55,997 nucleotides of DNA from an uncultured Clostridia bacterium (lineage in GTDB: Bacteria > Bacillota > Clostridia > Oscillospirales > Ruminococcaceae). Within the stretch, counting starts at the first letter, position 1; each line of letters begins with the position of its first letter. The stretch covers positions 1 through 55,997 of the forward strand of contig CAMCFA010000010.1 of the NCBI GenBank assembly GCA_945873955.1. The letters are read 5' to 3'. The notes below the pieces were generated by a model, which worked only from the letters and a program-made list of their open reading frames with translations, ran no database searches and was not told the DNA's origin. Made by a program: the position numbers and the translations under genes. Of the stretch, positions 29,923-52,518 are shown piece by piece.

Positions 29923-30483
29923 TTAACTCCTCCTTCCTATTTTCGAGATAAAGTCCTGTACGGCGCTGTTCTGCCGATTCTCGGTCAGTGAGATCAGATC
30001 CGGATTGCGGCGCACAAAGTCCTTTTCGCTGTCAGTGAGCTTACCGGACTGCTGCCGGGAACGCAGGCTGACTAATATATTAAAAAAGCAGTCCTTGCCG
30101 AGGTCGGCAAAAAGACTGCGGAATTTCCACCAGTGAAGATATTCAATATCATTTAAATCAATATTGAAGCTGCTTTTAAAGGCTGTAAAAATGTAGCCCG
30201 AGTCTTTTTCAAGGCTGTAAACCAGCGGCTGATTCAGCTTGGCTGCGTCTGTTTCCTTGCCGAGATTTAAAAATTTCAGCCCCTGCGATAATGCAAGGGC
30301 TGTGTTTTCAGGTGGTTCGGGATAGAGCAGAACCATGAGAACCGTCAGCTTCTCATGTTCCATGAGGTTATCGTCCTCCAGCGCCTGAATTATCTTCAGG
30401 CATATCCGGAAGTCTGTATTTATAGTTACCGCCGTGCCGTCTATCATGACAGCCTGCGGAAGCTGTTCAAGAATAATGTTCAC
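29923..30483 (-). CDS. Gp15-family tail protein
   Basis: 186 residues matching the phage Gp15 family (A118 group): VLMVLLYPEPPENTALALSQ, FNIDLNDIEYLHWWKFRSLF, and a C-terminal DFVRRNPDLISL. It overlaps the chaperone gene upstream by 4 bases. In this phage group the gene precedes the tape measure and is thought to act in tail assembly. I see no slippery sequence that would make it a frameshift extension. Confidence 0.8.
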   Translation of the reverse strand: MNIILEQLPQAVMIDGTAVTINTDFRICLKIIQALEDDNLMEHEKLTVLMVLLYPEPPENTALALSQGLKFLNLGKETDAAKLNQPLVYSLEKDSGYIFTAFKSSFNIDLNDIEYLHWWKFRSLFADLGKDCFFNILVSLRSRQQSGKLTDSEKDFVRRNPDLISLTENRQNSAVQDFISKIGRRS

Positions 30484-30893
30484 TTCATTACACCGCCCTT
30501 AATGGCATCGGTGTAGTGCTTGATAAGTTTGTCAGAGGTCTGAGTGAAGAAGTGCGCCGTTTCGCAGATAAAACGTATAAGCTCCGAGGGATCGCACCTG
30601 CCGCCGGTAAGCAGCGTCGCCGTTCCAGCGCCGTAGATCCCGTCCACCTGTTCACACAGAAAGTCGGTGAACCGCTTAAGCTCTCTGGTGTTTTCAAGCT
30701 CGGCATTGGAAACGCCGTTTTCATCAACCACCGGAACAATTTCCTTCGGCTTGTAGTTCTTCAGGTTCTCGTATGTTTCGTAGAATTTCTGCCGGGTCGA
30801 AAGATCAGTCGGATAGAAATTTATCGTGCTGATTTTTCCATCGACATCAAATTCTATGGCAATAGGTTTTTCGGTGTTTACTGTATACTTCAT
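30480..30893 (-). CDS. tail assembly chaperone-like protein
   Basis: 137 residues (FYPTDLSTRQKFYETYENLK, LCEQVDGIYGAGTATLLTGG). Position directly before the Gp15-type gene and tape measure, plus the mostly helical acidic character, match the gp14-type tail assembly proteins of A118-like phages. Coupled to the next gene by ATGA. Confidence 0.75.
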   Translation of the reverse strand: MKYTVNTEKPIAIEFDVDGKISTINFYPTDLSTRQKFYETYENLKNYKPKEIVPVVDENGVSNAELENTRELKRFTDFLCEQVDGIYGAGTATLLTGGRCDPSELIRFICETAHFFTQTSDKLIKHYTDAIKGGVMK

Positions 30894-30915
30894 GTTAATT
30901 CCTCCATATAAATAT

Positions 30916-30944
30916 AAAGAGCACCATGTTCAATGGCGCTCTTT
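30916..30944 (-). terminator. hairpin between the lipoprotein gene and tail chaperone
   Basis: AAAGAGCACCAT (30916-30927) and ATGGCGCTCTTT (30933-30944) form a 12-bp stem with one mismatch and a 5-base loop. On the minus strand it is followed by a T-rich tract. It closes the lipoprotein transcription unit, yet late mRNA must also cross it. Confidence 0.65.
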
Positions 30945-30949
30945 ATAGA

Positions 30950-31438
30950 TTAAGCAATATCGTCAGCAGCAGAAAGCAGTTCCTTCAGTTTCGCGTAATT
31001 ATCCACCGTTGCTTGGTCGCTTTTTGTTTCAGCACCACGGTAAACATACTTAACGGTCTTGAATGCTTGCCAACCTATTTTCTCAAAATCATTACCGGTT
31101 TTCTTGTACCTGTATTCCAGCAGCTCACCATTGTACATGGTAAGTTCCATATTTTCCTGACTAGAGAAAATATTTTCAACATTCTCTTTAAGCCAGTCAA
31201 GAGCCGCCTGAAGTTCTTCATCGGTTGCATCTTCTGCATCAGTTTTTGCCTTGTAGCAGATGTAATCCACATAAGCAGATGTCCCATGTTCGGACGGCTC
31301 GGTAAGTTTTGACGAAGTAGAAGCGATTGTGGTAACACTGTTTTCCACACTTTGCGTTGGCTGTTCTATTTTAGCGCACGCGCTTAAAGATACACAGACA
31401 CCAATAACACTGATGATTGCTATTACTTTTCTTTTCAT
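30950..31438 (-). CDS. small phage lipoprotein (moron)
   Basis: 162 residues. A lipoprotein signal with lipobox LSAC (VSLSACAKIEQ) is followed by a Ser/Thr linker and a compact domain (WLKENVENIFSSQENMELTM, GWQAFKTVKYVYRGAETKS). It interrupts the tail genes and has its own promoter and terminator, so it is probably made in the lysogen. Surface lipoproteins in this position can block superinfection, but nothing in the sequence proves that here. Confidence 0.75.
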   Translation of the reverse strand: MKRKVIAIISVIGVCVSLSACAKIEQPTQSVENSVTTIASTSSKLTEPSEHGTSAYVDYICYKAKTDAEDATDEELQAALDWLKENVENIFSSQENMELTMYNGELLEYRYKKTGNDFEKIGWQAFKTVKYVYRGAETKSDQATVDNYAKLKELLSAADDIA

Positions 31439-31469
31439 GACATTGCCCTCCAGTTGTAATTTTTCTTAT

Positions 31470-31498
31470 ATTATATCACAGCCGGAGAAAAAAATCAA
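31470..31498 (-). promoter_or_regulatory. promoter of the lipoprotein gene
   Basis: On the minus strand TTGATT (31498-31493), a 17-base spacer and TATAAT (31475-31470) preceded by TGA form a near-consensus extended promoter. It lies in the gap between the spoIIID-like gene and the lipoprotein ATG, with CTGGAGGGCA as ribosome-binding site before the ATG. Confidence 0.8.
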
Positions 31499-31526
31499 GC
31501 TTTTTGTGTCAAGATTTACAATGCAC

Positions 31527-31793
31527 TTATTTGAGAGCTGCATATTTTCTCTGCGTTGCAAGACCGCCGCGCACATTTCGCTCTTGCTTGTTTCTATCAA
31601 GGATTTGCCGAACCTTTTCGCAGAGAAAAGGGTTCACATTCGCCAGATTCACAGTAACATCTTGATGAACTGTGCTTTTGCTTATGCCGAATTTTTTCGC
31701 TGCGGAACGTACCGTTGCTCCGCTTTCCAGTATATATTGACCTATCAATACACACCGTTCCTGAGCTGGCTTACTGATCGAGTATTCTCTCAT
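31527..31793 (-). CDS. spoIIID: SpoIIID-like sporulation transcription factor
   Basis: 88 residues from the ATG at 31793; GAGGAGG lies 7 bases upstream. It aligns over its full length with SpoIIID: RCVLIGQYILESGATVRSAA, KFGISKSTVHQDVTVNL, NPFLCEKVRQILDRNKQERN, VRGGLATQRKYAA. The helix-turn-helix and the basic C-terminal helix are both present. SpoIIID acts in the mother cell after sigma-E and activates or represses many sporulation genes. Here it lies 26 bases after the tail tube gene, inside the late operon. That it acts on host sporulation genes is inference; a phage promoter is the alternative target. Confidence 0.88.
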   Translation of the reverse strand: MREYSISKPAQERCVLIGQYILESGATVRSAAKKFGISKSTVHQDVTVNLANVNPFLCEKVRQILDRNKQERNVRGGLATQRKYAALK

Positions 31794-31819
31794 CAAATGC
31801 CTCCTCGATTTACTCTGAC

Positions 31820-32590
31820 TTATGTAGAGCTGCCATAAACCGCCGTCACGCTGCCAGCCTTGACCGCCTTGTTCGCGGCGTCAGCCTCGACAACAGTAAT
31901 GATCGCCGGAGAACCGGACACGCTTACGGCGGTACCCGGCGACAGGTTAGTCCAAGAGGAAACGTCCTGTCCCTCGGTTACGTTCTGCGCACTTGCGCCG
32001 CCCTTGTAAACGTAGTGATTGCCGGTTTCAAGCTGCGGGGAAACGAACAGCACCGTGCTGGTCGCCGTTGTTCCGGCAGTGGAAACTACCGTCAGAGCGC
32101 CGATGCCGTCCTCGGAGGTAAAGGTGTTCGCGGAACGGTCATATACGCCGTAGGTGCGCTCGCCCTCCCAGACGATATCAAAAGGAGCGGTAACACCGTC
32201 GGCAGCAGCGCCGCCCCAGCTCTTGAGGTCGATCTTAGCTTCCTGCGTCCATGCCGCGAACTGCTCCTCGCCAACCTTATCAAAGATGGAAACCTCCATA
32301 AATCTGTACTTTACCTCGTCAAGCTGCTTATCCAGCCTGTCGATCTCATACAGTTCCTTGCCCAGCGCGGAATCCCGGGCGATAAGGAACGGAGAAACAG
32401 AAGTCACCTGATTGCCCTTAGTGACCTTGCTCTTGGTTGCACCGAGGACGTTCTTGGTCTGGGTCACCGTATTGTTGCGGGTGCGCTCCAGCGACTCGTT
32501 GTCCTCGCCGATGGGATACCAGATGCCGTTGATCTGTATGAATAAAATACTCTGTTCGCGCTCGATTGCGCCTGTTCCTGTGATAGCCAT
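31820..32590 (-). CDS. major tail tube protein
   Basis: 256 residues from the ATG at 32590 (GAAAGGA upstream), preferred over an open extension to 32623. Features: GTGAIEREQSILFIQINGIW, LERTRNNTVTQTKNVLGATK, QLDEVKYRFMEVSIFD. The C-terminal 80 residues (HYVYKGGASAQNVTEGQDVS, GSPAIITVVEADAANKAV) look like an added Ig-type surface domain. Position between connectors and tape measure supports the call. Confidence 0.85.
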   Translation of the reverse strand: MAITGTGAIEREQSILFIQINGIWYPIGEDNESLERTRNNTVTQTKNVLGATKSKVTKGNQVTSVSPFLIARDSALGKELYEIDRLDKQLDEVKYRFMEVSIFDKVGEEQFAAWTQEAKIDLKSWGGAAADGVTAPFDIVWEGERTYGVYDRSANTFTSEDGIGALTVVSTAGTTATSTVLFVSPQLETGNHYVYKGGASAQNVTEGQDVSSWTNLSPGTAVSVSGSPAIITVVEADAANKAVKAGSVTAVYGSST

Positions 32591-32594
32591 AATA

Positions 32595-33017
32595 TCAAAT
32601 CCTTTCTTTATATACGAATTCAAGCTGCGTTACATATACGCCCGTGATCCTGTCCTCCGCGACCTCATCAAGGCAGCCGGACTCAACCACTCTGATACTT
32701 TTTCCTGTCTGCTTATCGCCCAGAGCAGGGAAGCTGCGCCTATCGTTCTGATCGTCTATCCAGCGGCAGAACTTCTCCAGAAATTCAATATTCTTGCCGC
32801 GCTCCATGTCGCTGCCTATCGCGGTGCGGTATGCAAACTGAAACGTTACCGTGTAGATCCGGTTTCCGAGAATGTCCTTGCGGTAAGGAACATTCGGAAC
32901 GGTCGAAACGCAGTAGCAGTCTTTGTCGTCCACATAATCAAGATAGAACGGCAGCTCCGGCTTCAGCAGCGGACACCCGGAAAGGTATTCGCAAACGCTG
33001 TCCATTACTGATTTCAC
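32595..33017 (-). CDS. minor capsid/tail completion protein
   Basis: 140 residues (RKDILGNRIYTVTFQFAYRT, FLEKFCRWIDDQNDRRSFPA). It matches the A118-group minor capsid 3-type protein by order and size: third of three small genes after the head connector. Overlaps its upstream neighbour by 4 bases. Confidence 0.75.
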   Translation of the reverse strand: MKSVMDSVCEYLSGCPLLKPELPFYLDYVDDKDCYCVSTVPNVPYRKDILGNRIYTVTFQFAYRTAIGSDMERGKNIEFLEKFCRWIDDQNDRRSFPALGDKQTGKSIRVVESGCLDEVAEDRITGVYVTQLEFVYKERI

Positions 33018-33394
33018 GGCATCAGCCTCCTTGCGTAATTCTTAACTTCACGGATAATGGTATCTTTTCTCGCCGCCCACATACGGTGAAACCATTTTGA
33101 ACCGCGCTTGCCGTTCAATCTGCTGTTGCTGCTGTAATACCGCTTATGAGCATACGGCGCGATATACACCAGCTCGCCGCTGCCCATTCGTGAACCGAGA
33201 ACGACCGACTTTTTCAGAATACCGGTTCTCATGGGAACGTAAGCGTCCATGTGCCGGACTACGGTGTTGTCGATGAACACCTGAAGCCGGTCGAAGTTCT
33301 CGTTCATCTGCCGAGCGCCCCTGTTCCAGCGGATAACCGCCTGACCGTTTGCATTGGCGAAAAGCTGTCCACGGTCTGTTACGATCCTCATCAT
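33014..33394 (-). CDS. minor capsid protein 2-type (gp10-like)
   Basis: 126 residues with the typical VPMRTGILKKSVVLGSRMGS and VYIAPYAHKRYYSS segments of small head-tail joining proteins that contact the tail terminator. It begins in an ATGATG overlapping the preceding stop. In A118-like phages it follows the minor capsid 1-type gene, as here. Confidence 0.8.
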   Translation of the reverse strand: MMRIVTDRGQLFANANGQAVIRWNRGARQMNENFDRLQVFIDNTVVRHMDAYVPMRTGILKKSVVLGSRMGSGELVYIAPYAHKRYYSSNSRLNGKRGSKWFHRMWAARKDTIIREVKNYARRLMP

Positions 33395-33789
33395 TTACCG
33401 CTCACCTCCCAGTGCCATAGTGATTTAGATCCGAAGCGGCAGTCACGAACCGCCGTAATTATCATTTTTTCGGTGTGCTGCCGTTCCAGATCAGCGGCGC
33501 TGGTAATGTCGCCGCATTCGCCCCTTGCGATTATGTCACCGGGTGAAAGCGTAAACTTATCCTCCTCCGGACAGCTCTGTGCAAACCATTGCGCCGCCGG
33601 AATACACGAAGCCATGTCGGGTATCATCACGGTAATGTTATCGCCGCTTTCCTTGCCGGTCTTGCTGAACGCCACTCCACAGGTGCTGTCCCAGAATACT
33701 CCGTGAACCACTGTCCGGCGAATTGTAGGAGAATTGCGCCCCTGCTGTGGGATCATGTTGTAGACGGTAATTGTTTCGGTGAACCTCAT
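33391..33789 (-). CDS. minor capsid protein 1-type
   Basis: 132 residues from the ATG at 33789, which overlaps the preceding stop as ATGA; the longer open frame to 33831 runs into that gene. Contains FTETITVYNMIPQQGRNSPT, GDNITVMIP and KFTLSPGDIIARGECG. Head-completion component by family and order. Confidence 0.78.
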   Translation of the reverse strand: MRFTETITVYNMIPQQGRNSPTIRRTVVHGVFWDSTCGVAFSKTGKESGDNITVMIPDMASCIPAAQWFAQSCPEEDKFTLSPGDIIARGECGDITSAADLERQHTEKMIITAVRDCRFGSKSLWHWEVSGK

Positions 33790-34139
33790 TCCCGTCCCAC
33801 CCCTCTGTAAAGCCACTCCGCCGGAAGCCACGTCCGGCAGGCAGCCCTTGCCATGACCGTTTCTGAAGCGCTCTCCGAGCCTGCCAGAGAATAACTCCAG
33901 CTCCCGACGCTCTCAGACTGCTTCACCATGCCGCCGTTGCCGTCGGTGAGAAGCAGGCTCTCACACAGCTCGCAGCAGCACCTTTTCAGCCGCTCGTCAT
34001 CAGCGTTCTCGGCGGCACGTCCGAAAGTAAGCTGGTCGATATAGGCGGAGGCTTTGGCGGCAATCCGAGGGAAATCCTCCTCGCTTACCGCTTTGCCGCC
34101 GTAGGTGCCGGTGTAGTAGGTGTAATCTGCGTAGATCAT
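33786..34139 (-). CDS. head-tail connector protein
   Basis: 117 residues. The N-terminal helix ends in DFPRIAAKASAYIDQLTFGR, followed by RLKRCCCELCESLL: the helical-bundle type seen in gp6/gp15 connectors that line the portal exit. It ends in a basic tail and overlaps the capsid gene's stop by 4 bases. Confidence 0.8.
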   Translation of the reverse strand: MIYADYTYYTGTYGGKAVSEEDFPRIAAKASAYIDQLTFGRAAENADDERLKRCCCELCESLLLTDGNGGMVKQSESVGSWSYSLAGSESASETVMARAACRTWLPAEWLYRGVGRE

Positions 34140-35038
34140 GCGCTTACAGATGCACGCATAGCGTCAAGCGCCTTGTCCATTACCCAAAGGTCGTGGAACT
34201 TGCGGTACTCGATTTTCCATGCGTCAGCGCCCTGCGTCTGGGACGGGTCGAAGATCTTCACGCCGTCGGTCTTGGACACCGCGATCGGCGCTGACTTCGG
34301 GCAGATGATCCAGTTGATGTCTTTAGCGTCAGAGGCAGCGGTGAAGCCGAAAGCGGACGCGCCGCTGTTGAAGGTGTACGCCGATTTCATTCTCGCAGAG
34401 GGAACACGGATTATCGGGATACCGTTCAGAGTCATGATCTCGGTGGAGATCTCGCCCTGCTTGAATGCAGTGAGGTTGATGTAACGCTGGAACTCTTCGC
34501 CGTAGGAGAGTTTCTCCGCGATCGGAATGCTCATGATGATCACCAGATCGGTATTAGAGCCGCACTTGTCGCGAACCTCGCCGATATCTGCCTTTAGGGA
34601 ACTGATAATGGTGGACTTATCCGGTGTGTAAGTTTCCACATTACCCTTGGCGTTGATGAGCTTATAGAGCGTGCTGTAACGGTATGCGTCGATCTCCGGG
34701 ATAACGTTCTCGGACTGAAATACGCGCATTGTTTCCGCAGCGGTTGCGATAAAACCGCTCTCGTCAACGTCGATACGGTCAAGCAGGAACTCGATACCTC
34801 TGTCCTGCGTCATGGTTTTGGTCTGGTAGGTCAGCGCAACCTTGCCCCTCGGGTACCCGGAATTGCGGTCGTAGTTGCCCAGACCGTCAGTTGCAATGGT
34901 GGGGATCTTTATCTCCCTGCCGCCGGAGTACTTTACGTTCCCGGCGTTCGCTTCCATCCAGCCGGAAGTTGCGCCCTCAATGATCTGCTGGTCGCAAGCC
35001 TTTTGGAAAAGCGCTGCTGTTTCAATGCTGTTTGCCAT
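34136..35038 (-). CDS. major capsid protein
   Basis: 300 residues, HK97-fold type by content: GREIKIPTIATDGLGNYDRN early, RGIEFLLDRIDVDESGFIAT, IPEIDAYRYSTLYKLIN for the spine, and IIMSIPIAEKLSYGEEFQRY and NGIPIIRVPSARMKSAYTF in the A domain. It follows the scaffold gene, and the strong AGGAGGTAAC site before the ATG fits high expression. Confidence 0.92.
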   Translation of the reverse strand: MANSIETAALFQKACDQQIIEGATSGWMEANAGNVKYSGGREIKIPTIATDGLGNYDRNSGYPRGKVALTYQTKTMTQDRGIEFLLDRIDVDESGFIATAAETMRVFQSENVIPEIDAYRYSTLYKLINAKGNVETYTPDKSTIISSLKADIGEVRDKCGSNTDLVIIMSIPIAEKLSYGEEFQRYINLTAFKQGEISTEIMTLNGIPIIRVPSARMKSAYTFNSGASAFGFTAASDAKDINWIICPKSAPIAVSKTDGVKIFDPSQTQGADAWKIEYRKFHDLWVMDKALDAMRASVSA

Positions 35039-35057
35039 ATAGTGTTACCTCCTGTAA

Positions 35058-35630
35058 TTACTTAGAATTCAGCCCGAAACCGCTGAAGATCTGCGATTCG
35101 AGGTTGTTTGCGTCAAGGGACTCGCTGCTCTGGGTGCTGCCCATGAAAAGACCGGGCTTCTCATCGGCGGCGAACACGGACGGTTCAGACTGCTTCAGTC
35201 CCTCAAGGTACTCCTTGCCGCCGAGGAACTCGCCGTTCTCCAGCTTAAAGCCCTTGCCCTTGAACTCGTCCAGCACGGACTTACGCACCCTGTCGCTGGC
35301 GAACTTGTACCCGCTGAACAGCTTCTCGGCGGCGAAATCAGACTCCTGTGCTGTGAGCTTGGCGGTGAGATCCTCGGTTTCCTGCTTGTACTTGGCGTTC
35401 AGCTCGTCAAGCTGCTTCTGAAGCTCCTCGGACTTATTGTCCGCCTTGAGCTTCTCCAGATCCTTGTCCCGGGCGGCGAGCTGCTTAGTAAGCTCCTCCA
35501 GCTTGGTCTTGTCGGCGGCGGCAGCTTCGGCGGGAACGAATTCCTTGCCAACGACCTCCTTGATCTGCTTGGTCTGATCTGCGGTCAGCTCAATGCCGAG
35601 CTTCTGAATGAGTTTTAAAAGTTTTTCCAT
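35058..35630 (-). CDS. capsid scaffolding protein (GP20-type)
   Basis: 190 residues, almost wholly charged coiled coil in the middle (LEELTKQLAARDKDLEKLKA, KSEELQKQLDELNAKYKQET). A small C-terminal region ends at NLESQIFSGFGLNSK. This is the phage minor structural GP20/scaffold family that precedes the capsid gene. Confidence 0.9.
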   Translation of the reverse strand: MEKLLKLIQKLGIELTADQTKQIKEVVGKEFVPAEAAAADKTKLEELTKQLAARDKDLEKLKADNKSEELQKQLDELNAKYKQETEDLTAKLTAQESDFAAEKLFSGYKFASDRVRKSVLDEFKGKGFKLENGEFLGGKEYLEGLKQSEPSVFAADEKPGLFMGSTQSSESLDANNLESQIFSGFGLNSK

Positions 35631-35662
35631 GTGTAAAACCTCCTGTAAAATATGAATTAAGG

Positions 35663-35691
35663 TATATAAAAAGCACCCCGTTCGGAGTGCT
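35663..35691 (-). terminator. terminator-like hairpin inside the late operon (1)
   Basis: On the minus strand AGCACTCCG and GGGGTGCT pair (8 bp, one G-U) and are followed by TTTTTATATA. It lies directly after the 56-aa gene and 30 bases before the scaffold gene. Confidence 0.7.
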
Positions 35692-35693
35692 GA

Positions 35694-35864
35694 TTATCTG
35701 TGCTTACGCCGCTGGATCGCGGCGACGTATGTCTTGAAGCCGCTGTCCGGAGGATCAAGCGCGTGGAACGGCAGGTTTGCATAAGCGTTTATCGCTATTG
35801 TAGCCGCCGTTGTGACTGCGAAAACCGCCGCAAAGCGGTTTCTGAGGTGTCTGTCCTGCATCAT
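35694..35864 (-). CDS. small membrane-type phage protein
   Basis: 56 residues from an ATG ATG at 35864, with AGAAAGGAG upstream. A basic start (MMQDRHLRNR) leads into one hydrophobic segment (FAAVFAVTTAATIAINAY), then a soluble end with IQRRKHR. It is short but has a perfect ribosome-binding site and its own hairpin behind. Function unknown. Confidence 0.65.
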   Translation of the reverse strand: MMQDRHLRNRFAAVFAVTTAATIAINAYANLPFHALDPPDSGFKTYVAAIQRRKHR

Positions 35865-35891
35865 GGGTTTGCTCCTTTCTGGTTTTGAGTA

Positions 35892-35918
35892 TAAAAATGC
35901 GCCCCTCGTCTAGGAGCG
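35892..35918 (-). terminator. terminator-like hairpin inside the late operon (2)
   Basis: CGCTCCT and AGGGGCG on the minus strand form a 7-bp stem with a 5-base loop, followed by CATTTTTA. It begins right after the stop codon of the 47-aa gene. Confidence 0.65.
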
Positions 35919-35919
35919 T

Positions 35920-36063
35920 TTAATCCTGTTCGCTGTCGGTCACCTCAAGCTCAATATCCTTGAGTAGGTCGAGAGTGTCGGCAAGCTCTTTAGCCTTGAC
36001 CGCGATCACGTTCAGAGCGTCCTTGAGCTTATCGGCGTTTTCAGGGGATATGTTGATGTCCAT
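35920..36063 (-). CDS. small acidic phage protein
   Basis: 47 residues from the ATG at 36063 (GAAAGGAGGT upstream). The longer open frame to 36174 lacks a site and has unlike composition. Sequence is one amphipathic helix (NADKLKDALNVIAVKAKELA) with an acidic end. Unknown function. Confidence 0.65.
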   Translation of the reverse strand: MDINISPENADKLKDALNVIAVKAKELADTLDLLKDIELEVTDSEQD

Positions 36064-36093
36064 GGGGTTTACCTCCTTTCGGGGTAAAGAATT

Positions 36094-36115
36094 GCACCCC
36101 CATTGCTGGGAGTGC
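36094..36115 (-). terminator. hairpin inside the late operon (3)
   Basis: GCACTCCC and GGGGGTGC on the minus strand form an 8-bp stem (one G-U) with a 6-base loop. Its stem resembles the hairpin at 35663-35691 closely. The T tract is weak (AATTCTTTA). Confidence 0.5.
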
Positions 36116-36136
36116 GAAATAATAATGCAACTGCGA

Positions 36137-36349
36137 TCACAGTAGCTCGACATTTGATATTTCATCTTCGGCAAAGATGAGGTCTAAACCATCGTCACAA
36201 AGAAAACAGATTCCATCGCCCTCTTCGCCGTCCTTATAAGTAGCGATACAAGGCTGATAGCCTTTGCCAACATACACATTACCGTCTGTATCGGTAACTC
36301 TGGCTCTTTTTCCGTCCAGTATGTCAATGTTTCTCTGACAAATGTTCAT
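36137..36349 (-). CDS. small acidic beta-barrel-like phage protein
   Basis: 70 residues (RVTDTDGNVYVGKGYQPCIA, DGLDLIFAEDEISNVELL). The pattern of a basic strand, D-G-x-x-Y-x-G turn and an acidic last strand resembles small LSM-like phage proteins. It follows the minor capsid/toxin-like gene by 2 bases, so an immunity role is conceivable but unproven. Confidence 0.65.
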   Translation of the reverse strand: MNICQRNIDILDGKRARVTDTDGNVYVGKGYQPCIATYKDGEEGDGICFLCDDGLDLIFAEDEISNVELL

Positions 36350-36351
36350 AA

Positions 36352-37989
36352 CTAATCATCTTCTTTCTCTGAAACCGGGAATAAGTGATACCCGCCATCT
36401 TGATATCTGATTTGAAATCTTCGTGTCCTGACGTATTTTTGCAGTTTTCGGTCAAATGTAATGCCAACCGGGTAATCCGCAGTAACAAATTCATCGACAG
36501 TTGAGCTGTTCTTTTGCAATCTGAGCGTTCCCTTTCCAGAATACTCCTTGAATAGCTTTTCTGGAGTCACATCTTTGAAAAGTCTGCTCTTTGGAGAAGC
36601 GGCTTTGGTATCACCATCATACAGCCTATTCATTTGCTGCTTTACATTGTTTTTCCATTCAGGTGAAATGATATGCTTTTTCTGATTTTTCACATCAAGC
36701 GAGGTGTTGATTTTGCCGCTTTTTAGGTCGGAACGGAATTGTTCTTTCTGTTCCTCTTGCTCAATTATAGCACGATTCTTTTCTTCTGTCAAGCGAATCT
36801 GCGCCTCATCAAACGCCCGCTGCTTCCGTGTGACCGCCCCGGTCTTACCGGCGAGCCTGCGGTTATACCCCGCCACGAACGTCCGCTCATACTCGGTGTA
36901 CGTCCCCGCGGCATTGCAGAAATCCTCGTAGATATCCTTCTGCCGCCGCAACTTAATGCTGGCAGCGGTGAAATTCTCCTCGTCCCCGGCAGCGTCGGCG
37001 ACAATGCAGCGGTCTTTCTGCCTGCGCATAGCGCGTTCCATTTTCCGCATTTGCTGCTGAGCCTCGTATGCGGTGTACTTCCGCCCCTCATAAGTAAACG
37101 GCGGCGGGTCAATGTTCCGAAGCTCCTCCTCGGTGTAGGTCGGCTCGGATATACCTATTATAATAGGATAAGCCGAGTGACGGCAGTTGTAGTCCTCAAT
37201 CAGCGGCTTAACTATGCTGTCATACTGACTGTTCGGGAACTGGCGCCCCTGATACACCGCATGGGACGGACGTGCGCCGGAATGCGCCGAGATCTCCCAC
37301 CCGTCCGCGCCGAAGTCCTCCGCATTCTGCTCGGATATACGCTGCGTGATATGGGAAACGCTGGTCATAAGCGCCCGGCGAACAGCTACCTCCACCCGGT
37401 CGGAATGTCCGGATTCATAGTCAATCGTCCGCACGCCGCTTGCCGCCAGCTTGTTGCAAGCCTGCCGGATCGCGGTCATGTAGTCCGTAGCTCCGGTCAC
37501 GACCTTCATGTGCGCCGAATCAAGCTCCCTGCGGTACATATCCGTCATGGACAGGTAATACACCCGCCCGAAGAAGTCATGGTCGGCGAAGCCCAGCGTT
37601 CCGGTGAGGTTCTCGCACGCCCCGGCGGTTTCCTTTATCTGCGCCGCCATGAGCTTCTGAAGCTGCTCGTTATCCTTGAGCGGAACAGCCGCTCCGTCAT
37701 CAGCGCCTAGCATCTGCCGGTCAAACTCGTCGGACTGCGCCGCAGCGTCCCGGATCAGCTTGTCGATAACATCAGTGGAATCTCCGTTTATCTCGGCGAT
37801 CTTGGCGGCGATCTCCTTTTCGGACAGACCCAAAGACCGCGCCCTGTACAGCTGGTACTCAGCCGTGTCGGTGATTTTCGCGCCCTTTGCTATGCGCCGG
37901 GCAATGTCCCGCAGGATAAAGTCGGACAGATCAGAGTAGAGGTCGGTAAGCTCCTTTGGCAGGTTCTGGAGTTGTTGAGGTGTGAGCAT
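36352..37989 (-). CDS. phage minor capsid protein with toxin-50-like C-terminus
   Basis: 545 residues. The first 370 are the minor capsid 2 family of portal-associated proteins (LPKELTDLYSDLSDFILRDI, TRRVEVA-type helix, HSGARPSHAVYQGRQFPNSQ, YNCRHSAYPIIIG). A basic coiled linker follows. The last 105 residues (HIISPEWKNNVKQQMNRLYD, DEFVTADYPVGITFDRKLQK, FQIRYQDGGYHLFPV) match the pattern of the polymorphic toxin type 50 domain. That domain is known at the end of this phage family. Whether it is an active nuclease is unknown. It may be injected or act in DNA ejection. Confidence 0.82.
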   Translation of the reverse strand: MLTPQQLQNLPKELTDLYSDLSDFILRDIARRIAKGAKITDTAEYQLYRARSLGLSEKEIAAKIAEINGDSTDVIDKLIRDAAAQSDEFDRQMLGADDGAAVPLKDNEQLQKLMAAQIKETAGACENLTGTLGFADHDFFGRVYYLSMTDMYRRELDSAHMKVVTGATDYMTAIRQACNKLAASGVRTIDYESGHSDRVEVAVRRALMTSVSHITQRISEQNAEDFGADGWEISAHSGARPSHAVYQGRQFPNSQYDSIVKPLIEDYNCRHSAYPIIIGISEPTYTEEELRNIDPPPFTYEGRKYTAYEAQQQMRKMERAMRRQKDRCIVADAAGDEENFTAASIKLRRQKDIYEDFCNAAGTYTEYERTFVAGYNRRLAGKTGAVTRKQRAFDEAQIRLTEEKNRAIIEQEEQKEQFRSDLKSGKINTSLDVKNQKKHIISPEWKNNVKQQMNRLYDGDTKAASPKSRLFKDVTPEKLFKEYSGKGTLRLQKNSSTVDEFVTADYPVGITFDRKLQKYVRTRRFQIRYQDGGYHLFPVSEKEDD

Positions 37990-37991
37990 GG

Positions 37992-39353
37992 TTACTGCTC
38001 ACCCCCGAAAGCCTCCGTCATCGGCGGTAACATCTCCCGCGCCTTATCCAGCGGAACGCCGAAGTACCACGCAATGAACTCCTCCGCTTTGAGCATTCCC
38101 GCCTGCACCATTTGAAAGCGGCGGTTGAACTCCGTCCCGGTGTCCTCGAAAACGCTGTCGCCGAACTCTATCGCGCACTCGCCGTCCTCGCATTCAATGC
38201 CGTAGAACCTCGCCAGCGTGACGGTTATCTTGTTCAGAGCCTCCAGCACCGGGCGGAGCTGCCGCTGTATCTGGCAGACGGTGTTGTAGGTGGTCTTATC
38301 CTCGGACAGCACCTGCGTTGCCGTAACCAGCCCCTTTGACGAATCAAAGGTGAACGTTCCGGAGCTGACTCCAATCTGAACCTCATACAGCCGAAGTTCG
38401 GTGTTTATCTGCGCCCGGTGCGCTTCTTCACGGATAGCCGGGGCGTAGGTCATTATTTGCTGCTCCATGGTGCGTTGTCCGTCGCCGTCCACGTTCACAA
38501 AATAATCATCGGTGATTTTCCCGTTCTTGTCGAAGATACCGTTATCACCAAAAACTTTAGCTGACATCTTCCGGAACTCAGCCAGATATTCCGAATGTGC
38601 CGAATCTATCTCATGCAGCGTTCCCACCGAATTAGCGAACAACGAAACCGGCAGCTCGCTGTCGAGGTCTATGTTGTTGGCATACGGTGTGCGGAACGTA
38701 GCTATCATGGGAATGTCGGAGGGTATCCTGCCCTCTGGAAGGAGGACAGCCCAGCGCGGCACCTCCGTCAGCTCCACACGGTGGCGGGTGCCGTAAAGGT
38801 ACGCTGAATTCCGCACGGTGTGAACTCCGTCCGCGAATATGTGATGTTCCCGCCGTTCATAGACCTTGCCCTTGTACCGGATACGCTCAAAGAAAATGCC
38901 CTCGGTGATGTGTCCGTTCTCGTCCAGCGCGATTGGACGGAAGTCCCGGCTTGTTCCCACATCGAAGAAAATTTCGCCGCTGCTGACTATGTACGGCTTG
39001 ATGACCGTGTACCCGCCCACTAACGTCAGCTGCGTAATGCGGTCGAGGTTCGGGACAAGGTTCTTCTGAACGAATCCGTTCAGCTGCTCATCGGCGACCT
39101 CGAACTTGATTTCAGCGGTGACAAGCTGCGCAAGATATGCTGTCGAGGTGTAGGCAATCGGCAGCGGACGGAAATTCTTGTGTGTCTTTTCCATCGGCAG
39201 AGAGTTCTGGAACACGTTCCACCAGACGTTGGTTACTGATTTCATAGTAGGGCTTACCGCCGATTCCACCTTATTTAAATCTGCTTCTTCCATTGTTTCA
39301 CCGCCTTGTTTAAAGCCGTTTAAAAGGCTTTTTATTCTGTCTAAAACGTTCAT
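37992..39353 (-). CDS. portal protein (SPP1 gp6-type)
   Basis: 453 residues. The SPP1-type portal pattern shows VWWNVFQNSLPMEK early, then YTSTAYLAQLVTAEIKFEVA, VGGYTVIKPYIVSSGEIFFD and EVQIGVSSGTFTFDSSKGLV near the end. It forms the dodecameric DNA gate at one capsid vertex. Overlaps the terminase gene by 4 bases and is 2 bases from the minor capsid gene. Confidence 0.93.
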   Translation of the reverse strand: MNVLDRIKSLLNGFKQGGETMEEADLNKVESAVSPTMKSVTNVWWNVFQNSLPMEKTHKNFRPLPIAYTSTAYLAQLVTAEIKFEVADEQLNGFVQKNLVPNLDRITQLTLVGGYTVIKPYIVSSGEIFFDVGTSRDFRPIALDENGHITEGIFFERIRYKGKVYERREHHIFADGVHTVRNSAYLYGTRHRVELTEVPRWAVLLPEGRIPSDIPMIATFRTPYANNIDLDSELPVSLFANSVGTLHEIDSAHSEYLAEFRKMSAKVFGDNGIFDKNGKITDDYFVNVDGDGQRTMEQQIMTYAPAIREEAHRAQINTELRLYEVQIGVSSGTFTFDSSKGLVTATQVLSEDKTTYNTVCQIQRQLRPVLEALNKITVTLARFYGIECEDGECAIEFGDSVFEDTGTEFNRRFQMVQAGMLKAEEFIAWYFGVPLDKAREMLPPMTEAFGGEQ

Positions 39354-40606
39354 TGTTCTAACCTCACTAACCTCGGAATGTACCGCTCGAAGCTGTACTC
39401 GAAAGCGTCCAGCGTATCAATGTCGGAAGTACCGTCGTCAAGCCGAACCTCCGCGCCGATGACCTTATCGTCCCAGACAGCGCCCTGAAATGCGTCAATC
39501 AGGCTGCCGCATTCCTCGGAGATCAGGTTGAACCGCCCGCCAGCCATGAGCATGGTGGTCGCCCGGATACGGTCGTTAATTTCGCGCTTCAGCGCGTTTT
39601 TAACGATGATCCCCAGTGGTTTCAGCGCCAGCCGAAGCCCGGCAATAAGGGTCTGCTCAGCGCTGTCGCCGTACAGCGTCGGGACTATGCCGTACCGCTG
39701 CATGATGTCGGCACAGAAATCATACACCCTTTTGTAAAGCCCCTGCGGGGTCATTCCCGCCGCCGGGATATGCTCGGATCTCAGCGCGAACAGCCGCCGG
39801 TAGTCCTGCGTTATTCCACACGCTACAAGCGCATGAGCCGATTCGTTTCCGCCGAAGTCCAGACCGACATTGATCTGGTCGAGGTGAGGAAGCTCCGCAG
39901 CGCTGACGTTGTAGGAACTCGGATCGTCCGAAAAGACCTTGTATATCGCGCCCTGTGCAACCACCCACTTACCCAGAATAAAGCGGTCGTAAAACACGCC
40001 GGTGTACTCCTTTTTCAGACTTTCAACGTAATCCGCCGGAAGCGTTGTGTTGTCGTCAATGCTGAAAAATACCGACAGTAGATCGTCCACGAGCTTCTTG
40101 TTGTCGAGGTACTCCTTTTTAAGCCAGTGTGTCGGAACGTCCGGGTTGGTGGTGGCGAGCAGCTTCGCCCCCGGCGCTGAAAGACGTGACAGCAGCATGG
40201 TGAAGAAGTCCTTCGGGAACAGCGTCAGCTCATCGCAGTAAGCGCCGCCAAGCGTGATACCTCGAATCTTGCCCTCGGAACGTGCGTCATTTGCGCCCTC
40301 CAGCATGATCTTTCGCCCAAACAAAACGCCCTCCTTAGTGGAGAGCGAAAATGTGAAATGCTTCTCGCCGATAAGCTCCTGCAAAGGGAACAGGCAGTTG
40401 CGTTTGAGTGTCTGGAGCGACTTCGCGCACATCATATAAAGGTAGTCCTTCGGACGGCTTGCCACCCAGAACGCCCACAAAATCAGAGATATCCACGTCT
40501 TGCCGGAACGGACAGAGCCTTGCAGGATATTCAGACGTTTCAGCCTGTCCTGCTTGAACAGCCGCATAAGCTCGTTCTGCTTTGCGGTGAAGCCTAGTTC
40601 ACGCAT
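39350..40606 (-). CDS. terL: terminase large subunit
   Basis: 418 residues (PBSX/SPP1-type). ATPase: GSVRSGKT (30-37) as Walker A, GAYCDELTLFPKDFFTMLLS with the Walker B acid, and the coupling motif ATTNPD. Nuclease: INVGLDFGG provides the first acid and TLYGDSAEQ the next. It drives headful-type DNA packaging with the small subunit encoded upstream, which it overlaps by 8 bases. Confidence 0.95.
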   Translation of the reverse strand: MRELGFTAKQNELMRLFKQDRLKRLNILQGSVRSGKTWISLILWAFWVASRPKDYLYMMCAKSLQTLKRNCLFPLQELIGEKHFTFSLSTKEGVLFGRKIMLEGANDARSEGKIRGITLGGAYCDELTLFPKDFFTMLLSRLSAPGAKLLATTNPDVPTHWLKKEYLDNKKLVDDLLSVFFSIDDNTTLPADYVESLKKEYTGVFYDRFILGKWVVAQGAIYKVFSDDPSSYNVSAAELPHLDQINVGLDFGGNESAHALVACGITQDYRRLFALRSEHIPAAGMTPQGLYKRVYDFCADIMQRYGIVPTLYGDSAEQTLIAGLRLALKPLGIIVKNALKREINDRIRATTMLMAGGRFNLISEECGSLIDAFQGAVWDDKVIGAEVRLDDGTSDIDTLDAFEYSFERYIPRLVRLEQ

Positions 40607-41057
40607 TTTTCACCGCCTCCAGTATCTCGGCAAGAGCGCCCTCGGAATTGCCGGAAGCGCCGCCGGTCTTGCTGAACTCCTCGCCCTTTTTATTGATGAG
40701 GTAGAACTCAATAGCCGCCTGTGACGGAGCAATGTGCCGCTCACGGGTTTCCACGGTTTTCACACCGTTGACTATCTTGGTGGACTGCTCGGTGACGGTG
40801 TAGCCGGTCGCCGCTCTGATCAGCGCCTGTTCCACCTCGGCAGTGAGCAGCTCGCTGTTCTGGGACAGCAGCTCGTTCACTCCCTCGCAGCGGGACTTGA
40901 TCTCAGCTATCCGTTTTGCCCGCTTAGCCTCGTTGTTGGTAGATAAAAAAGCCTCGACAAGCTGCTGGACAGCAGATGCCGGAGCGGCGGAATTGATCTT
41001 CTCATGTTCAGCGATAGCCGCTCCAAGGGCTGCTATGCTCTTTTTCTTTTTGCTCAC
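40599..41057 (-). CDS. terS: terminase small subunit
   Basis: 152 residues (AEHEKINSAAPASAVQQLVE, RCEGVNELLSQNSELLTAEV, GASGNSEGALAEILEAVKNA). It follows the terminase_2-like plan in which an N-terminal helical DNA-binding part precedes a C-terminal segment. First gene of the late operon, behind a leader of about 290 bases with no gene. Confidence 0.82.
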   Translation of the reverse strand: MSKKKKSIAALGAAIAEHEKINSAAPASAVQQLVEAFLSTNNEAKRAKRIAEIKSRCEGVNELLSQNSELLTAEVEQALIRAATGYTVTEQSTKIVNGVKTVETRERHIAPSQAAIEFYLINKKGEEFSKTGGASGNSEGALAEILEAVKNA

Positions 41058-41144
41058 ACGGTCACTCCTTTCTCTGTTGCCGTTTAAATTCGTTTTAAAG
41101 CCGTTTAAATGCCCGATTTCCCGGTTGGTGGTAAAACTACCCCA

Positions 41145-41184
41145 GAAAAAAATACCCCCGCTTCTGCGTGATTTTGGTGGGTAT
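41145..41184 (-). terminator. T-tract terminator in the late leader, before terS
   Basis: On the minus strand ATACCC (41184-41179) pairs with GGGTAT (41157-41152), with two more G-C pairs inside, and is followed by a run of seven T. It lies between the putative late promoter (41257-41262) and the terS start (41057). Late transcription therefore needs help to pass. Confidence 0.65.
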
Positions 41185-41302
41185 ATTTCTTTTGCCGGGA
41201 AAATACCCGTTCAAATGCATTCAAAGGGGCTTCAAAAACGCCGAATACACTTTGGTAGTATAAAATCCCTGCCTAAGAACACCCCTGCTTCTGCGCGATT
41301 TT
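41155..41302. repeat. 21-bp direct repeat in the late leader
   Basis: Positions 41155-41175 and 41282-41302 share 19 of 21 bases with core GCTTCTGCG. On the minus strand each begins AAAATC and ends in a G-rich tract; one copy sits over the -35 region of the putative late promoter, the other in the loop and arm of the terminator. Confidence 0.7.
41257..41285 (-). promoter_or_regulatory. putative late promoter
   Basis: A TATACT -10 box (41262-41257, minus strand) preceded by TTT has GGGGTG at the -35 position, far from consensus. Such promoters need an activator. One copy of the 21-bp repeat begins right at this -35 position. Confidence 0.4.
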
Positions 41303-41304
41303 AG

Positions 41305-41321
41305 AGGGCGTGCTTCGCCCT
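41305..41321 (-). terminator. hairpin after the NusG-like gene
   Basis: AGGGCG and CGCCCT form a 6-bp stem with a 5-base loop about 30 bases beyond the stop of the NusG paralogue. It is followed by CTAAAATCGC, so termination would be weak. It separates middle and late units. Confidence 0.45.
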
Positions 41322-41350
41322 ATCCGTTCGGACATAAAATCCGCAGATGA

Positions 41351-41872
41351 TCAGAGGATATATTTCGCCGCTCCGGAGCTTATCAACGGAGTAGCTGGCG
41401 GAACATCAAATTCGCAGCCGAGCGTTACCTCGTAATGCCTGCCGTATATCGTGATGTCCGCCGTTGCGCGCTTGCCGCGCCTGTTGTACTTGATTATCCT
41501 GTGTTCCAGCCGTTTGAGATAACCGTCCGTGATGTGCAGCACACCCCCGGAAACATATCCCCGGCTTATTCCCAGTCCATGCCCGTTATTGCAAAGGAAT
41601 CTGATGTACTCCTCCTCGGTAGGACTGAGCTGTGAGCTGCTCAATATCCGCAGCGTTCCGTAGCAGGACTTGACCGTCTGCCAGACCTCCGGGGTGAGTT
41701 CCGTCAGGTCGAGGAACACATACCCGCTGAATAGCAGGATCTCCCGCTGCACCCATGCACGGTGTCTGCGTTCCAGAACGATCCGGCGGGGCGCGTATGC
41801 TGTGATACCCTTGTCGGCAAGCTGCCGGACTATCGCCATTTCCTTGCCGGACTGACAATATATAACGTACAC
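41351..41872 (-). CDS. loaP: NusG paralogue, LoaP-type transcription antiterminator
   Basis: 173 residues from a GTG at 41872. AGGAGGGA precedes it and the previous stop TAG is 1 base away; the open extension to 41986 lies inside that gene. The N-terminal NGN domain has VYVIYCQSGKEMAIVRQLAD, ERRHRAWVQREILLFSGYVF and LRILSSSQLSPTEEEYIRFL. The C-terminal KOW domain has GGVLHITDGYLKRLEHRIIK and NRRGKRATADITIYGRHYEV. The long insert-free NGN and the KOW ending match Firmicutes LoaP, which binds an RNA hairpin in a leader and lets RNA polymerase ignore terminators. It is the last gene before the late leader, where Mu has its late activator. Confidence 0.88.
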   Translation of the reverse strand: MYVIYCQSGKEMAIVRQLADKGITAYAPRRIVLERRHRAWVQREILLFSGYVFLDLTELTPEVWQTVKSCYGTLRILSSSQLSPTEEEYIRFLCNNGHGLGISRGYVSGGVLHITDGYLKRLEHRIIKYNRRGKRATADITIYGRHYEVTLGCEFDVPPATPLISSGAAKYIL

Positions 41873-41873
41873 G

Positions 41874-42422
41874 CTATCCCTCCTGCTCCTGCGCCGCTTT
41901 GCTGTTGATGAACTGAACCAGCTGCCTGTAAAGCTCCGGGTTCTCCTTTGACATAGCGTCAAAAATTTCTTCCTTGAAGCTCTCAAAAGCCACGTTCTTG
42001 AGGTTCGCCGTCTTAATATCGGTGGAATTTTTCAGGCTGACCGCGCGGATCAGCGCCGTTGCCTTGTCGATCAGCTTCAGCGGATCGGACTCTTTCAGCG
42101 AAGTATCGTCCATTTCCCGGACTGCCTGCAGCACCTTGTGTGCGATCAGCCGGGCAATGCCCTCGGTGGTGTCAAGCTGCGGGAACTTCTGCATTTCCTC
42201 TGTGAGCGCTCTCATGTTCTCGCTGGCAAGCCGAATATCCTGTATGCTGGCATTTAGTCCCTGTGCGTATCGGCACACCGCCGCTTCGGAAAGTGTGACG
42301 TTCGCGGTGTCCCGGACGAAATTGCACACATCACGGTAGGTGTAATCGCCGAGGATCATCTGCTCCACTGCTTCCTTGATGTCCGACGGCAGCGCGTCTA
42401 TCTTACTGTGCTTACGTTTCAT
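41874..42422 (-). CDS. Mu gp27-like protein (DUF3486)
   Basis: 182 residues. The N-terminus is KIDALPSDIKEAVEQMILGD with AAVCRYAQGLN, a helix-turn-helix-like pattern typical of DUF3486. A long helical part with IDKATALIRAVSLKNSTDIK follows. In Mu-like phages this family lies between regulators and the terminase genes, as here; a small-terminase-like role has been proposed for some. Gap to the NusG paralogue is 1 base. Confidence 0.8.
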   Translation of the reverse strand: MKRKHSKIDALPSDIKEAVEQMILGDYTYRDVCNFVRDTANVTLSEAAVCRYAQGLNASIQDIRLASENMRALTEEMQKFPQLDTTEGIARLIAHKVLQAVREMDDTSLKESDPLKLIDKATALIRAVSLKNSTDIKTANLKNVAFESFKEEIFDAMSKENPELYRQLVQFINSKAAQEQEG

Positions 42423-43110: not shown

Positions 43111-43151
43111 ATTATACTATTGAAATGTATTTTTGTAAAATGTGATATCAC
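43111..43151 (-). promoter_or_regulatory. middle promoter with Mor-type palindrome
   Basis: On the minus strand TTTACA (43139-43134) and TATAAT (43116-43111) are 17 bases apart, so +1 is near 43104. A perfect palindrome GTGATATCAC (43142-43151) is centred about 42.5 bases upstream. In phage Mu, Mor binds a dyad centred at -43.5 of Pm. The mor-like gene ends 50 bases farther upstream, as in Mu. Confidence 0.65.
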
Positions 43152-43200: not shown

Positions 43201-43464
43201 TTATTTACTTAACCTGCGTACTTCCGATACCGGGATCTCCAGCTCTCTTGCTATCTGTTCCGGAGTATCGCCCTGCTGCCGCCGGCTGCGGATATGGCTG
43301 GAGATCTCCTGCGTAGATACCAGTGACCGGGCTTTAGGGATCCATATCGGCGATCCCCCGAACGTATCCACCAGCGCCCGGTAGTTATCCAGCCCGATCA
43401 CGTCCGCCACCTCCTGCTGGTCGGGATTAAGGTGGCTCTTTTTTACCAGTTGTGCCAGTCCCAT
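43201..43464 (-). CDS. mor: Mor-family middle transcription activator
   Basis: 87 residues from the ATG at 43464 (AGAGGTGAT upstream). QQEVADVIGLDNYRALVDTF, GGSPIWIPK and the C-terminal helix-turn-helix IARELEIPVSEVRRLSK match the Mor/C family of Mu, in which a dimerisation strand Gly-Gly-x-x-Ile/Tyr-Ile-Pro precedes the DNA-binding domain. It directly follows gemA, as in Mu, and is followed by a terminator and then a promoter with a dyad. Confidence 0.85.
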   Translation of the reverse strand: MGLAQLVKKSHLNPDQQEVADVIGLDNYRALVDTFGGSPIWIPKARSLVSTQEISSHIRSRRQQGDTPEQIARELEIPVSEVRRLSK

Positions 43465-43924
43465 GCTTATCACCTCTTTTCAGCTTGGCTTCTTCCGAGC
43501 GGAGAATGCGCTTCAGCAGCTCGATTATCGCCGAACCCTCTTGCCGGGACACATTATAAAAGATATCCCTATCGGTCGGGATATCCCGGTGAAGTTCTTT
43601 GGAAACCACGCCCCGCAGCCGTTCTCGCGGCTCGGCTTCGGACGGAGAAGCCGCCGCAATGCGGTACATCAGCTTGAAGCAGAAGCTGATCTGCTCCTTT
43701 GTTATCTTCTCCGGAACGATCTCCGGGACGGCGTGCTTCTTGTAGTCCTCCAGCCGGGTGATAATGAACGCCGCCTGCTTCTCCGTCAGCTCCGAAATAT
43801 GCTCTTTTAGGGAAAACTGCCGCACCCAGAGGTGAAGATTATCCTCTGTCCCCAGACTGCTGTCCAGAAGTCCCGTTGCAGCTCCCAGCGCATATATCCG
43901 CTTTATCTGCTCCTTAGTAGCCAT
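43427..43924 (-). CDS. GemA-like protein (DUF1018)
   Basis: 165 residues. ATKEQIKRIYALGAATGLLD and ISELTEKQAAFIITRLEDYK are the DUF1018/GemA signature. The start ATG overlaps the previous stop (TGATG). In Mu the GemA-Mor pair is encoded together; the overlap of gemA with mor is 38 bases here. GemA is reported to alter host gene expression and DNA topology. Confidence 0.85.
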   Translation of the reverse strand: MATKEQIKRIYALGAATGLLDSSLGTEDNLHLWVRQFSLKEHISELTEKQAAFIITRLEDYKKHAVPEIVPEKITKEQISFCFKLMYRIAAASPSEAEPRERLRGVVSKELHRDIPTDRDIFYNVSRQEGSAIIELLKRILRSEEAKLKRGDKHGTGTTGKKEPP

Positions 43925-52494: not shown

Positions 52495-52518
52495 CATGCT
52501 CCGACCTGCCATCATCAG

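What the first reader, a model, noticed from the sequence alone, without database searches (positions are those of the whole stretch)
41058..41872. Phage-encoded LoaP-type antiterminator placed at the gate of the late operon
The middle operon ends in a NusG paralogue with NGN and KOW domains of LoaP type. The next thing downstream is a 290-base gene-free leader with an activator-type promoter, a direct repeat and a T-tract terminator in front of terS. LoaP proteins known from Firmicutes act on biosynthetic operons through a leader hairpin. Here the same logic seems to replace the Mu late activator, so late expression would be switched by antitermination. The domain reading is from sequence; the function is inference.
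Basis: partly seen in the sequence, partly recalled or inferred. Interest (0 to 1): 0.85.

Follow-up and report, generated by a model that had tools for sequence, protein, structure and literature searches.

The report
Phage antiterminator gene with its RNA
A group of Mu-like phages carries a gene for a protein that probably lets RNA polymerase run through stop signals, directly followed by a conserved RNA of previously unknown function, and the pair sits right in front of the genes that build the virus particle.

Summary
The protein at 41351-41872 (-) is a NusG paralogue nearest to LoaP but below the curated LoaP cut-off; with its phage relatives it forms its own branch. In the Mu-like relatives examined, the gene keeps one slot: gp27-like gene, loaP, leader, then terminase. 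The leader just 3' of loaP is the orphan Rfam RNA RAGATH-28 (RF03052): a covarying hairpin with a UNCG loop, then a second hairpin ending in AUGGCGAAGC-NYR-CC. Searches by RNA alone led back to a LoaP-like gene in 9 of 9 family genomes, 4 of 4 class genomes and 20 of 21 viral contigs. The window has a diverged copy (41304-41396), with hairpin 1 inside the end of loaP and a UNAG loop; Rfam's model misses it. The second motif also lies beside 3 of 8 curated LoaP genes. Best reading: a cis-placed LoaP loading site that lets RNA polymerase read through into the late operon, which gives an orphan RNA a testable function. Antitermination itself is inferred, not shown.

The parts
41351..41872 (-). 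loaP-like gene, 173 aa, NGN + KOW-like C-terminal domain
   Evidence: NF033641 2.2e-26, 92.9 bits; phrog_6386 transcription antiterminator 8.8e-24; profile of 26 sequences hits PDB 8f5g at 1.3e-32, best core NusG at 4.5e-20, best RfaH at 5.5e-10; AlphaFold2 model
41304..41396 (-). diverged RAGATH-28-like RNA element, whole
   Evidence: Covariance model R1 built without the window group: best hit in the window, 16.9 bits, E=4.3e-4 over both strands; genome-wide E=0.027, third after two places read by eye as chance
41371..41391 (-). hairpin 1, CUCCG-UU-GA-UAAG-C-UC-CGGAG, inside the last codons of loaP (low-confidence tail)
   Evidence: only match of the bulged-hairpin descriptor in the window (the UNAG loop was allowed after seeing it); all pairs kept in 4 window-group members, outer pair CG/CG/UA/UG
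41306..41348 (-). hairpin 2 (AUCUG-CGGAU..GUCCG-AA-CGGAU) followed by AGGGCGAAGC-ACG-CCC, candidate hairpin-stabilised pause
   Evidence: motif in all 4 window-group members; outer stem UCUG/CGGA pairs in 4 of 4, ends 13-14 nt before the pyrimidine; in 35 relatives N-Y(35/35)-R(34/35) follows GGCGAAGC or GGCGGAGC
41208..41236 (-). phased boxes, copy 1 (three TTTGAA, 10-11 bp apart)
41146..41189 (-). terminator-like hairpin with T tract
   Evidence: -9.0 kcal/mol; not found in L005, L001, L002
41160..41174 (-). direct repeat copy 2 (AAATCACGCAGAAGC)
41287..41301 (-). direct repeat copy 1 (AAATCGCGCAGAAGC)
41081..41109 (-). phased boxes, copy 2 (three TTTAAA)
40599..41057 (-). terS-like gene, first gene after the leader
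   Evidence: phrog_309 9.6e-09
39350..40606 (-). terL
   Evidence: Terminase_6N 6.2e-16
41874..42422 (-). Mu gp27-like gene directly before loaP
   Evidence: Phage_Mu_Gp27 1.1e-13
43201..43473 (-). Mor/C-type late activator gene
   Evidence: phrog_836 4e-10; Pfam Mor 0.0013, below its cut-off
43111..43139 (-). sigma-70-like promoter TTTACA-17-TATAAT upstream of the gene run that ends in loaP, after a terminator-like site at 43195-43173
   Evidence: consensus scan only

Best explanation
A phage-encoded LoaP-like antiterminator works with an RNA loading site (RAGATH-28) placed directly 3' of its own gene. Transcription starting upstream, probably under the Mor/C-type activator, reads the genes up to loaP and the leader. 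New LoaP binds hairpin 1 (bulged stem, GA-UNCG-UC; UNAG in the window). Hairpin 2 with GGCGAAGC-NYR-CC pauses RNA polymerase so that the LoaP-RNA complex can join it. The modified polymerase then reads through terminators in front of terS and on into the late genes. Shown here: protein kind, fixed gene slot, RNA identity, covariation, tight association, and terminator enrichment over the set of leaders. Inferred: binding, pause, read-through, and the order of expression.
For: RAGATH-28 at gathering score directly after loaP (L041) and near a loaP (L037). In the same 197 genomes RF03052 is in 9, all of them loaP genomes (hypergeometric about 1e-14 if genomes were independent). RNA-only class search: 4 of 4 hits have a LoaP gene upstream. 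RNA pattern in viral contigs: 20 of 21 have loaP and gp27 upstream. Covariation 0.376 against 0.196 shuffled, 0 of 500. Terminator-like sites in 30 of 45 leaders against 5.6 by shuffling. Three of eight curated LoaP genes have the second motif within about 110 nt (R1 3.8e-7, 2.7e-5 and 0.11), one in a capsule operon. The cassette stays while the packaging module differs: L109, L111 and L121 carry a phrog_38-type TerL. Published LoaP needs a UNCG leader hairpin, is helped by a pause between hairpin and terminator, and antagonises NusA (PMC12691694).
Against: No binding or transcription data. The window leader fails RF03052 (no hit at E up to 10), its R1 score is weak genome-wide, L002 gives no R1 hit and L005 only E=2, and the loop is UNAG, not UNCG. 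L005, L001 and L002 lack a T-tract terminator. In the late region terminator-like sites are not enriched (21 against 17.0, sd 4.3) while promoter-like sites are (23 against 12.3, sd 4.2; both strands), which would allow internal promoters. Five of eight curated LoaP loci lack the motif nearby. Phased DNA boxes in the leader hint at another regulator.
Confidence: 0.77

Rival explanations
1. The leader is a late promoter region: the Mor/C-type or another DNA-binding protein sits on the helically phased boxes and late transcription starts in the leader; LoaP only helps elongation.
For: Boxes spaced 10/11, 21 and 31/32 bp, far above shuffles; in the window the only two arrays of three are in this leader. 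A Mor/C-type gene is present. Promoter-like sites are enriched in the late region.
Against: No sigma-70 promoter found in the window leader; boxes end about 24 nt before the terS start in the window, leaving little room for a promoter; arrays also occur elsewhere in L038 and L042; would not explain the LoaP-RNA coupling or the terminators.
Confidence: 0.12
2. The RNA element serves autoregulation: LoaP acts on its own mRNA end (stability or premature termination) rather than switching late genes.
For: The RNA lies directly 3' of loaP, and in L033 and the window group it overlaps the end of the gene.
Against: The curated LoaP in L163/L133 has the element before loaP, as a leader; terminators follow the element in 30 of 45 leaders.
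Confidence: 0.08
3. The RNA works without LoaP (for example as a ligand sensor) and merely travels with the same phage module.
For: RAGATH-28 has no assigned function in what I saw; phage modules travel together.
Against: The second motif lies beside chromosomal LoaP genes, in one case clearly a capsule operon; two gp27 loci without a detected loaP (L183, L187) show only about 160-170 nt between gp27 and the next head gene match.
Confidence: 0.08

Closest known systems
LoaP with the dfn/mln leaders of Bacillus velezensis
   Same: NusG paralogue; UNCG leader hairpin; pause between hairpin and terminator in dfn; terminator before a long operon (PMC12691694: passages, sections 11 and 13)
   Different: encoded by a phage, below the LoaP cut-off, separate branch in the tree; lies before terminase and head genes; second hairpin with GGCGAAGC is conserved; the window loop is UNAG. 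The dfn hairpin letters were not available, so no base-by-base comparison
RAGATH-28 RNA (Rfam RF03052)
   Same: hairpin 1 plus hairpin 2 plus AUGGCGAAGC, matched in relatives
   Different: no function known to me or found in the searches; the window copy is too diverged for the Rfam model; the link with LoaP is made here
Phage lambda N and Q antitermination
   Same: phage protein plus nucleic-acid site lets polymerase reach later genes (recalled; passages, abstract)
   Different: N and Q are not NusG-fold proteins (recalled); no site resemblance was tested
Mu middle/late activators Mor and C
   Same: a Mor/C-type gene is present
   Different: act at promoters (recalled), not by antitermination

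Membership tests
LoaP (NF033641) | score over the curated cut-off of 125 bits | tested here: not met
   92.9 bits; 8 phage relatives 87.9-112 bits. Many other genomes' NusG-domain genes also reach 91-112 bits (listed part), so the score alone does not separate
LoaP (NF033641) | NGN + KOW, closer to LoaP than to core NusG | tested here: met
   LoaP 92.9, UpxY 37.4, NusG 28.5, RfaH 25.2 bits; 8f5g best in PDB; fold
LoaP (NF033641) | groups with curated LoaP in a tree | tested here: not met
   45 of 46 phage rows form their own group, 98/92; L106 falls with curated LoaP; the 6 curated rows are themselves not one group
LoaP (NF033641) | UNCG hairpin in the target leader | tested here: inconclusive
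   UNCG in all 35 aligned relatives; UNAG in the window group
LoaP (NF033641) | promotes read-through | not testable with these tools
   needs transcription assays
RAGATH-28 (RF03052) | gathering score of 45.3 bits | tested here: not met
   window: no hit at E up to 10. Relatives over it: 5 of 197 genomes, 2 of 391
RAGATH-28 (RF03052) | structural homology at the same place | tested here: met
   R1 hit 41304-41396, E=4.3e-4 in the window, but 0.027 genome-wide; 48 of 48 pair cells kept in the window group
Core NusG (TIGR00922) | score over 135.7 bits | tested here: not met
   28.5 bits; the host has one other NusG-domain gene, which falls in the NusG group of the tree
RfaH (TIGR01955) | score over 144.5 bits | tested here: not met
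   25.2 bits; the modelled C-terminal domain is mostly beta
UpxY (NF033644) | score over 100 bits | tested here: not met
   37.4 bits
Mu-like transposable phage | Mu-type transposase, transposition protein, gp27 and Mor/C genes | tested here: met
   phrog_310 1.5e-99, phrog_296 1.3e-46; gp27; Mor/C

The most novel reading that the evidence does not exclude
RAGATH-28 is the nucleic-acid site of a phage branch of LoaP, made of a binding hairpin plus a built-in hairpin pause, and this cassette is the late-gene switch of a broad group of Mu-like phages. The same second hairpin marks LoaP target leaders in chromosomal operons, so RAGATH-28 defines a general class of LoaP-response RNAs.
Probability: 0.65. 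Interest if true: 0.87.

Novelty: new variant of a known kind. Interest (0 to 1): 0.8.

Why it matters
It offers a concrete, testable function for an orphan RNA family, moves LoaP-type antitermination from antibiotic and capsule operons into phage late control, and gives a searchable signature (hairpin plus GGCGAAGC-NYR-CC) for finding LoaP-controlled operons. It also suggests what the conserved pause element of a LoaP leader may look like.

Tried and rejected
Exact core GAACGGAYAGGGCGAAGC of the window group (up to 1 mismatch): 5 of 396 genomes including the own one, with 5 matches of the reversed control pattern, so chance outside the group. ATGGCGAAGCATACC alone in viral contigs: 49 loci, only 7 with loaP, too unspecific. 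A leader-peptide reading of AUGGCGAAGC was set aside: the window group has no AUG there and in 35 relatives the last bases of GCG and of the next codon do not vary. A pairing of hairpin 1 with GGCGAAGCAUACC, proposed by RNAalifold, was not followed: loop variants are not matched by changes in the motif (by eye). The bulged UNCG/UNAG hairpin was not found within up to 20 kb around seven curated LoaP genes; only the second motif recurs. GCGAAGUAUACCC hits in L128 and L129 look coding by eye and were read as chance. Likewise the two higher-scoring R1 places in the own genome. A search for comparison structures did not run.

Full report
What is there. The gene at 41351-41872 (-) codes for 173 aa. 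It matches LoaP (NF033641, 92.9 bits, cut-off 125), and far less well UpxY (37.4), NusG (28.5) and RfaH (25.2); PHROG 6386 calls it a transcription antiterminator. The LoaP score alone is not decisive: many other genomes' NusG-domain genes reach 91-112 bits on that model (listed part). A profile of 26 sequences finds PDB 8f5g best (1.3e-32), core NusG next (4.5e-20), RfaH last (5.5e-10). 8f5g is nearly the same sequence as L130, which passes the LoaP cut-off (187.3 bits; comparison by eye). AlphaFold2 gives two confident parts, the C-terminal one mostly beta strands, and a low-confidence tail. The host genome has one other gene with this domain. In a tree of 68 proteins, 45 of 46 phage rows form one group (98/92), apart from NusG and curated LoaP rows; the exception, L106, is a chromosomal LoaP. 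The six curated LoaP rows are not one group themselves. Rows were called NusG from their match and their place in the tree.

A fixed slot. Window genes were compared with 19 loci. In 17, a gp27-like gene lies directly before loaP; in L037 the loaP was found by another search; in L044, a megaphage, no other window gene was found. L103-L105, L165 and L166 and 20 viral contigs show the same order. Terminase genes were recognised downstream in 15 of the 18 Mu-like loci (13 there, L036 and L039; not shown for L038, L040, L043). In L109, L111 and L121 the TerL is of a different kind (phrog_38), with a phrog_64 portal in L111, so the cassette stays while the operon it precedes is exchanged. Two gp27 loci without a detected loaP (L183, L187) have only about 160-170 nt before the next head gene match. 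Hosts are mostly unnamed; L005 is from an Oscillospiraceae assembly and three phage records from human faeces.

The RNA. Leaders of distant relatives share GGUUGAUUCGUCCC in a hairpin and, further on, a second hairpin followed by AUGGCGAAGCAUACC. Rfam names this RAGATH-28, RF03052 (alignments). The association was tested three ways. (i) In the same 197 genomes, matches to the window protein are in 11 (own included) and RF03052 in 9; all 9 are loaP genomes and each RNA starts within about 300 nt of the end of the loaP match (p about 1e-14). The tenth other loaP genome, G153, has a chromosomal LoaP beside what looks like a sugar transferase (by eye), without the RNA. The own genome is not found by RF03052. 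(ii) Of 391 genomes of the class, 4 have RF03052; 4 of 4 have a LoaP gene directly upstream, 3 in Mu-like context and 1 (L106) in a capsule operon. (iii) A pattern of both motifs found 21 viral contigs in a collection of 2.9 million (tool description); 20 of 21 have loaP and gp27 upstream, and the other (L117) lacks hairpin 1 by eye. Some contigs are near copies: 42 extracted elements gave 38 distinct, and 3 of the 45 loci tried gave none with that script.

Structure. Model R1 was built from 35 of those 38, without the window group. It matched 42 of 43 sources given (not L017). On the 43 matches the covariation score is 0.376 against 0.196 shuffled (0 of 500) and at most 0.190 for slid partners; hairpin 1 has changes on both sides at 8 of 9 pairs and 80.8% of cells paired, hairpin 2 60.9%; the number of further pair types does not exceed shuffles (40 against 38.5). 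The alignment was fitted to the model and includes its 35 sequences and 2 weak chance-like matches, so these counts lean towards the structure. After GGCGAAGC (GGCGGAGC in L031) the next-but-one base is a pyrimidine in 35 of 35 and the following one a purine in 34 of 35. With a G ten positions before that pyrimidine and a hairpin 12-13 nt upstream this resembles a hairpin-stabilised pause; that consensus is recalled, so the pause is inference.

The window copy. RF03052 does not find it. R1 does: 41304-41396, 16.9 bits, E=4.3e-4 over the window; genome-wide E=0.027 and third, behind two places read by eye as chance. Of its close relatives, L001 gives only the GGCGAAGCAUACCC part (E=0.0027), L005 the right place at E=2, L002 nothing. 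By alignment all four keep hairpin 1 as G-UY-GA-UNAG-C-UC-C and hairpin 2, with 48 of 48 pair cells intact and two pairs changed on both sides (only 4 sequences, 49 of 500 shuffles as high). Hairpin 2 here has an extra outer stem UCUG/CGGA, paired in 4 of 4, which ends 13-14 nt before the pyrimidine; three of the four segments fold this way alone, L005 does not. Hairpin 1 lies inside the last codons of loaP, in the low-confidence tail.

Terminators. A hairpin with T tract of at most -7 kcal/mol lies between the RNA and the next start in 30 of 45 leaders, 5.6 expected from mononucleotide shuffles (some leaders are near copies). The window has one (-9.0); L005, L001 and L002 have none. In the late region 26000-41350 terminator-like sites are 21 against 17.0 (sd 4.3) and promoter-like sites 23 against 12.3 (sd 4.2).

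Chromosomal LoaP. L106 is over the LoaP cut-off (176.8 bits), beside CpsB/CapC and sugar transferase genes, with the second hairpin and motif (R1 3.8e-7). L133 (2.7e-5) and, weakly, L132 (0.11) show the element beside loaP. In the neighbourhoods of eight curated LoaP genes, the pattern GGCGAAG[CT]-N0-2-YR-CC occurs three times, each within about 110 nt of loaP; five lack it.

Mechanism and literature. In B. velezensis LoaP needs a UNCG leader hairpin, is helped by a pause between hairpin and terminator, and antagonises NusA (PMC12691694: passages; sections 11 and 13 whole). The phage leader has the same order: hairpin, pause-like element, terminator. PMC11061315 (passages) states that, ribozymes aside, the functions of the RAGATH RNAs were unknown, and gives one for RAGATH-18. 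Searches for RAGATH-28, and for LoaP with phage terms, listed no paper making this link (listings, partly capped; the original RAGATH papers and two LoaP papers are not held). Statements on Mu Mor/C are recalled.

Also in the leader: boxes of the type CGTTTAAAA spaced 10/11, 21 and 31/32 bp; 30 of 41 leaders have two or more, 4.1 expected from mononucleotide shuffles. In the window the only two arrays of three are in this leader; among 17 other loci scanned, arrays of three or more were in the leader of L031 and L035 and elsewhere in L038 and L042. Helical phasing points to a DNA-binding protein; its identity is open.

Noticed in passing
window 41081-41109 and 41208-41236: Helically phased TT-NN-AA boxes, found in many leaders (30 of 41 with two or more); a DNA-level operator of unknown protein.
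   Followed up: partly
window 52500-52577 (-): Type II hammerhead ribozyme just upstream of the transposase gene; also found in relatives L029, L030, L034, L041 and L042 of the 8 loci scanned.
   Followed up: no
window 36764-36792 (-): A perfect TTGACA-17-TATAAT promoter-like site with TG, inside the late region.
   Followed up: no
window 41371-41391 against L033: The end of loaP overlaps hairpin 1: in L033 the UGA stop is part of the hairpin, in the window group the frame reads through it. Translation might unfold the RNA.
   Followed up: partly
relatives, alignment A3: GGCGAAGCAUACC could pair with the hairpin 1 strand GGUUGAUUCGUC; no compensatory changes seen by eye, meaning unclear.
   Followed up: partly
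L044 (LR756501): A distant LoaP-like gene (25% identity) in a 735-kb phage record; no other window gene found near it.
   Followed up: no
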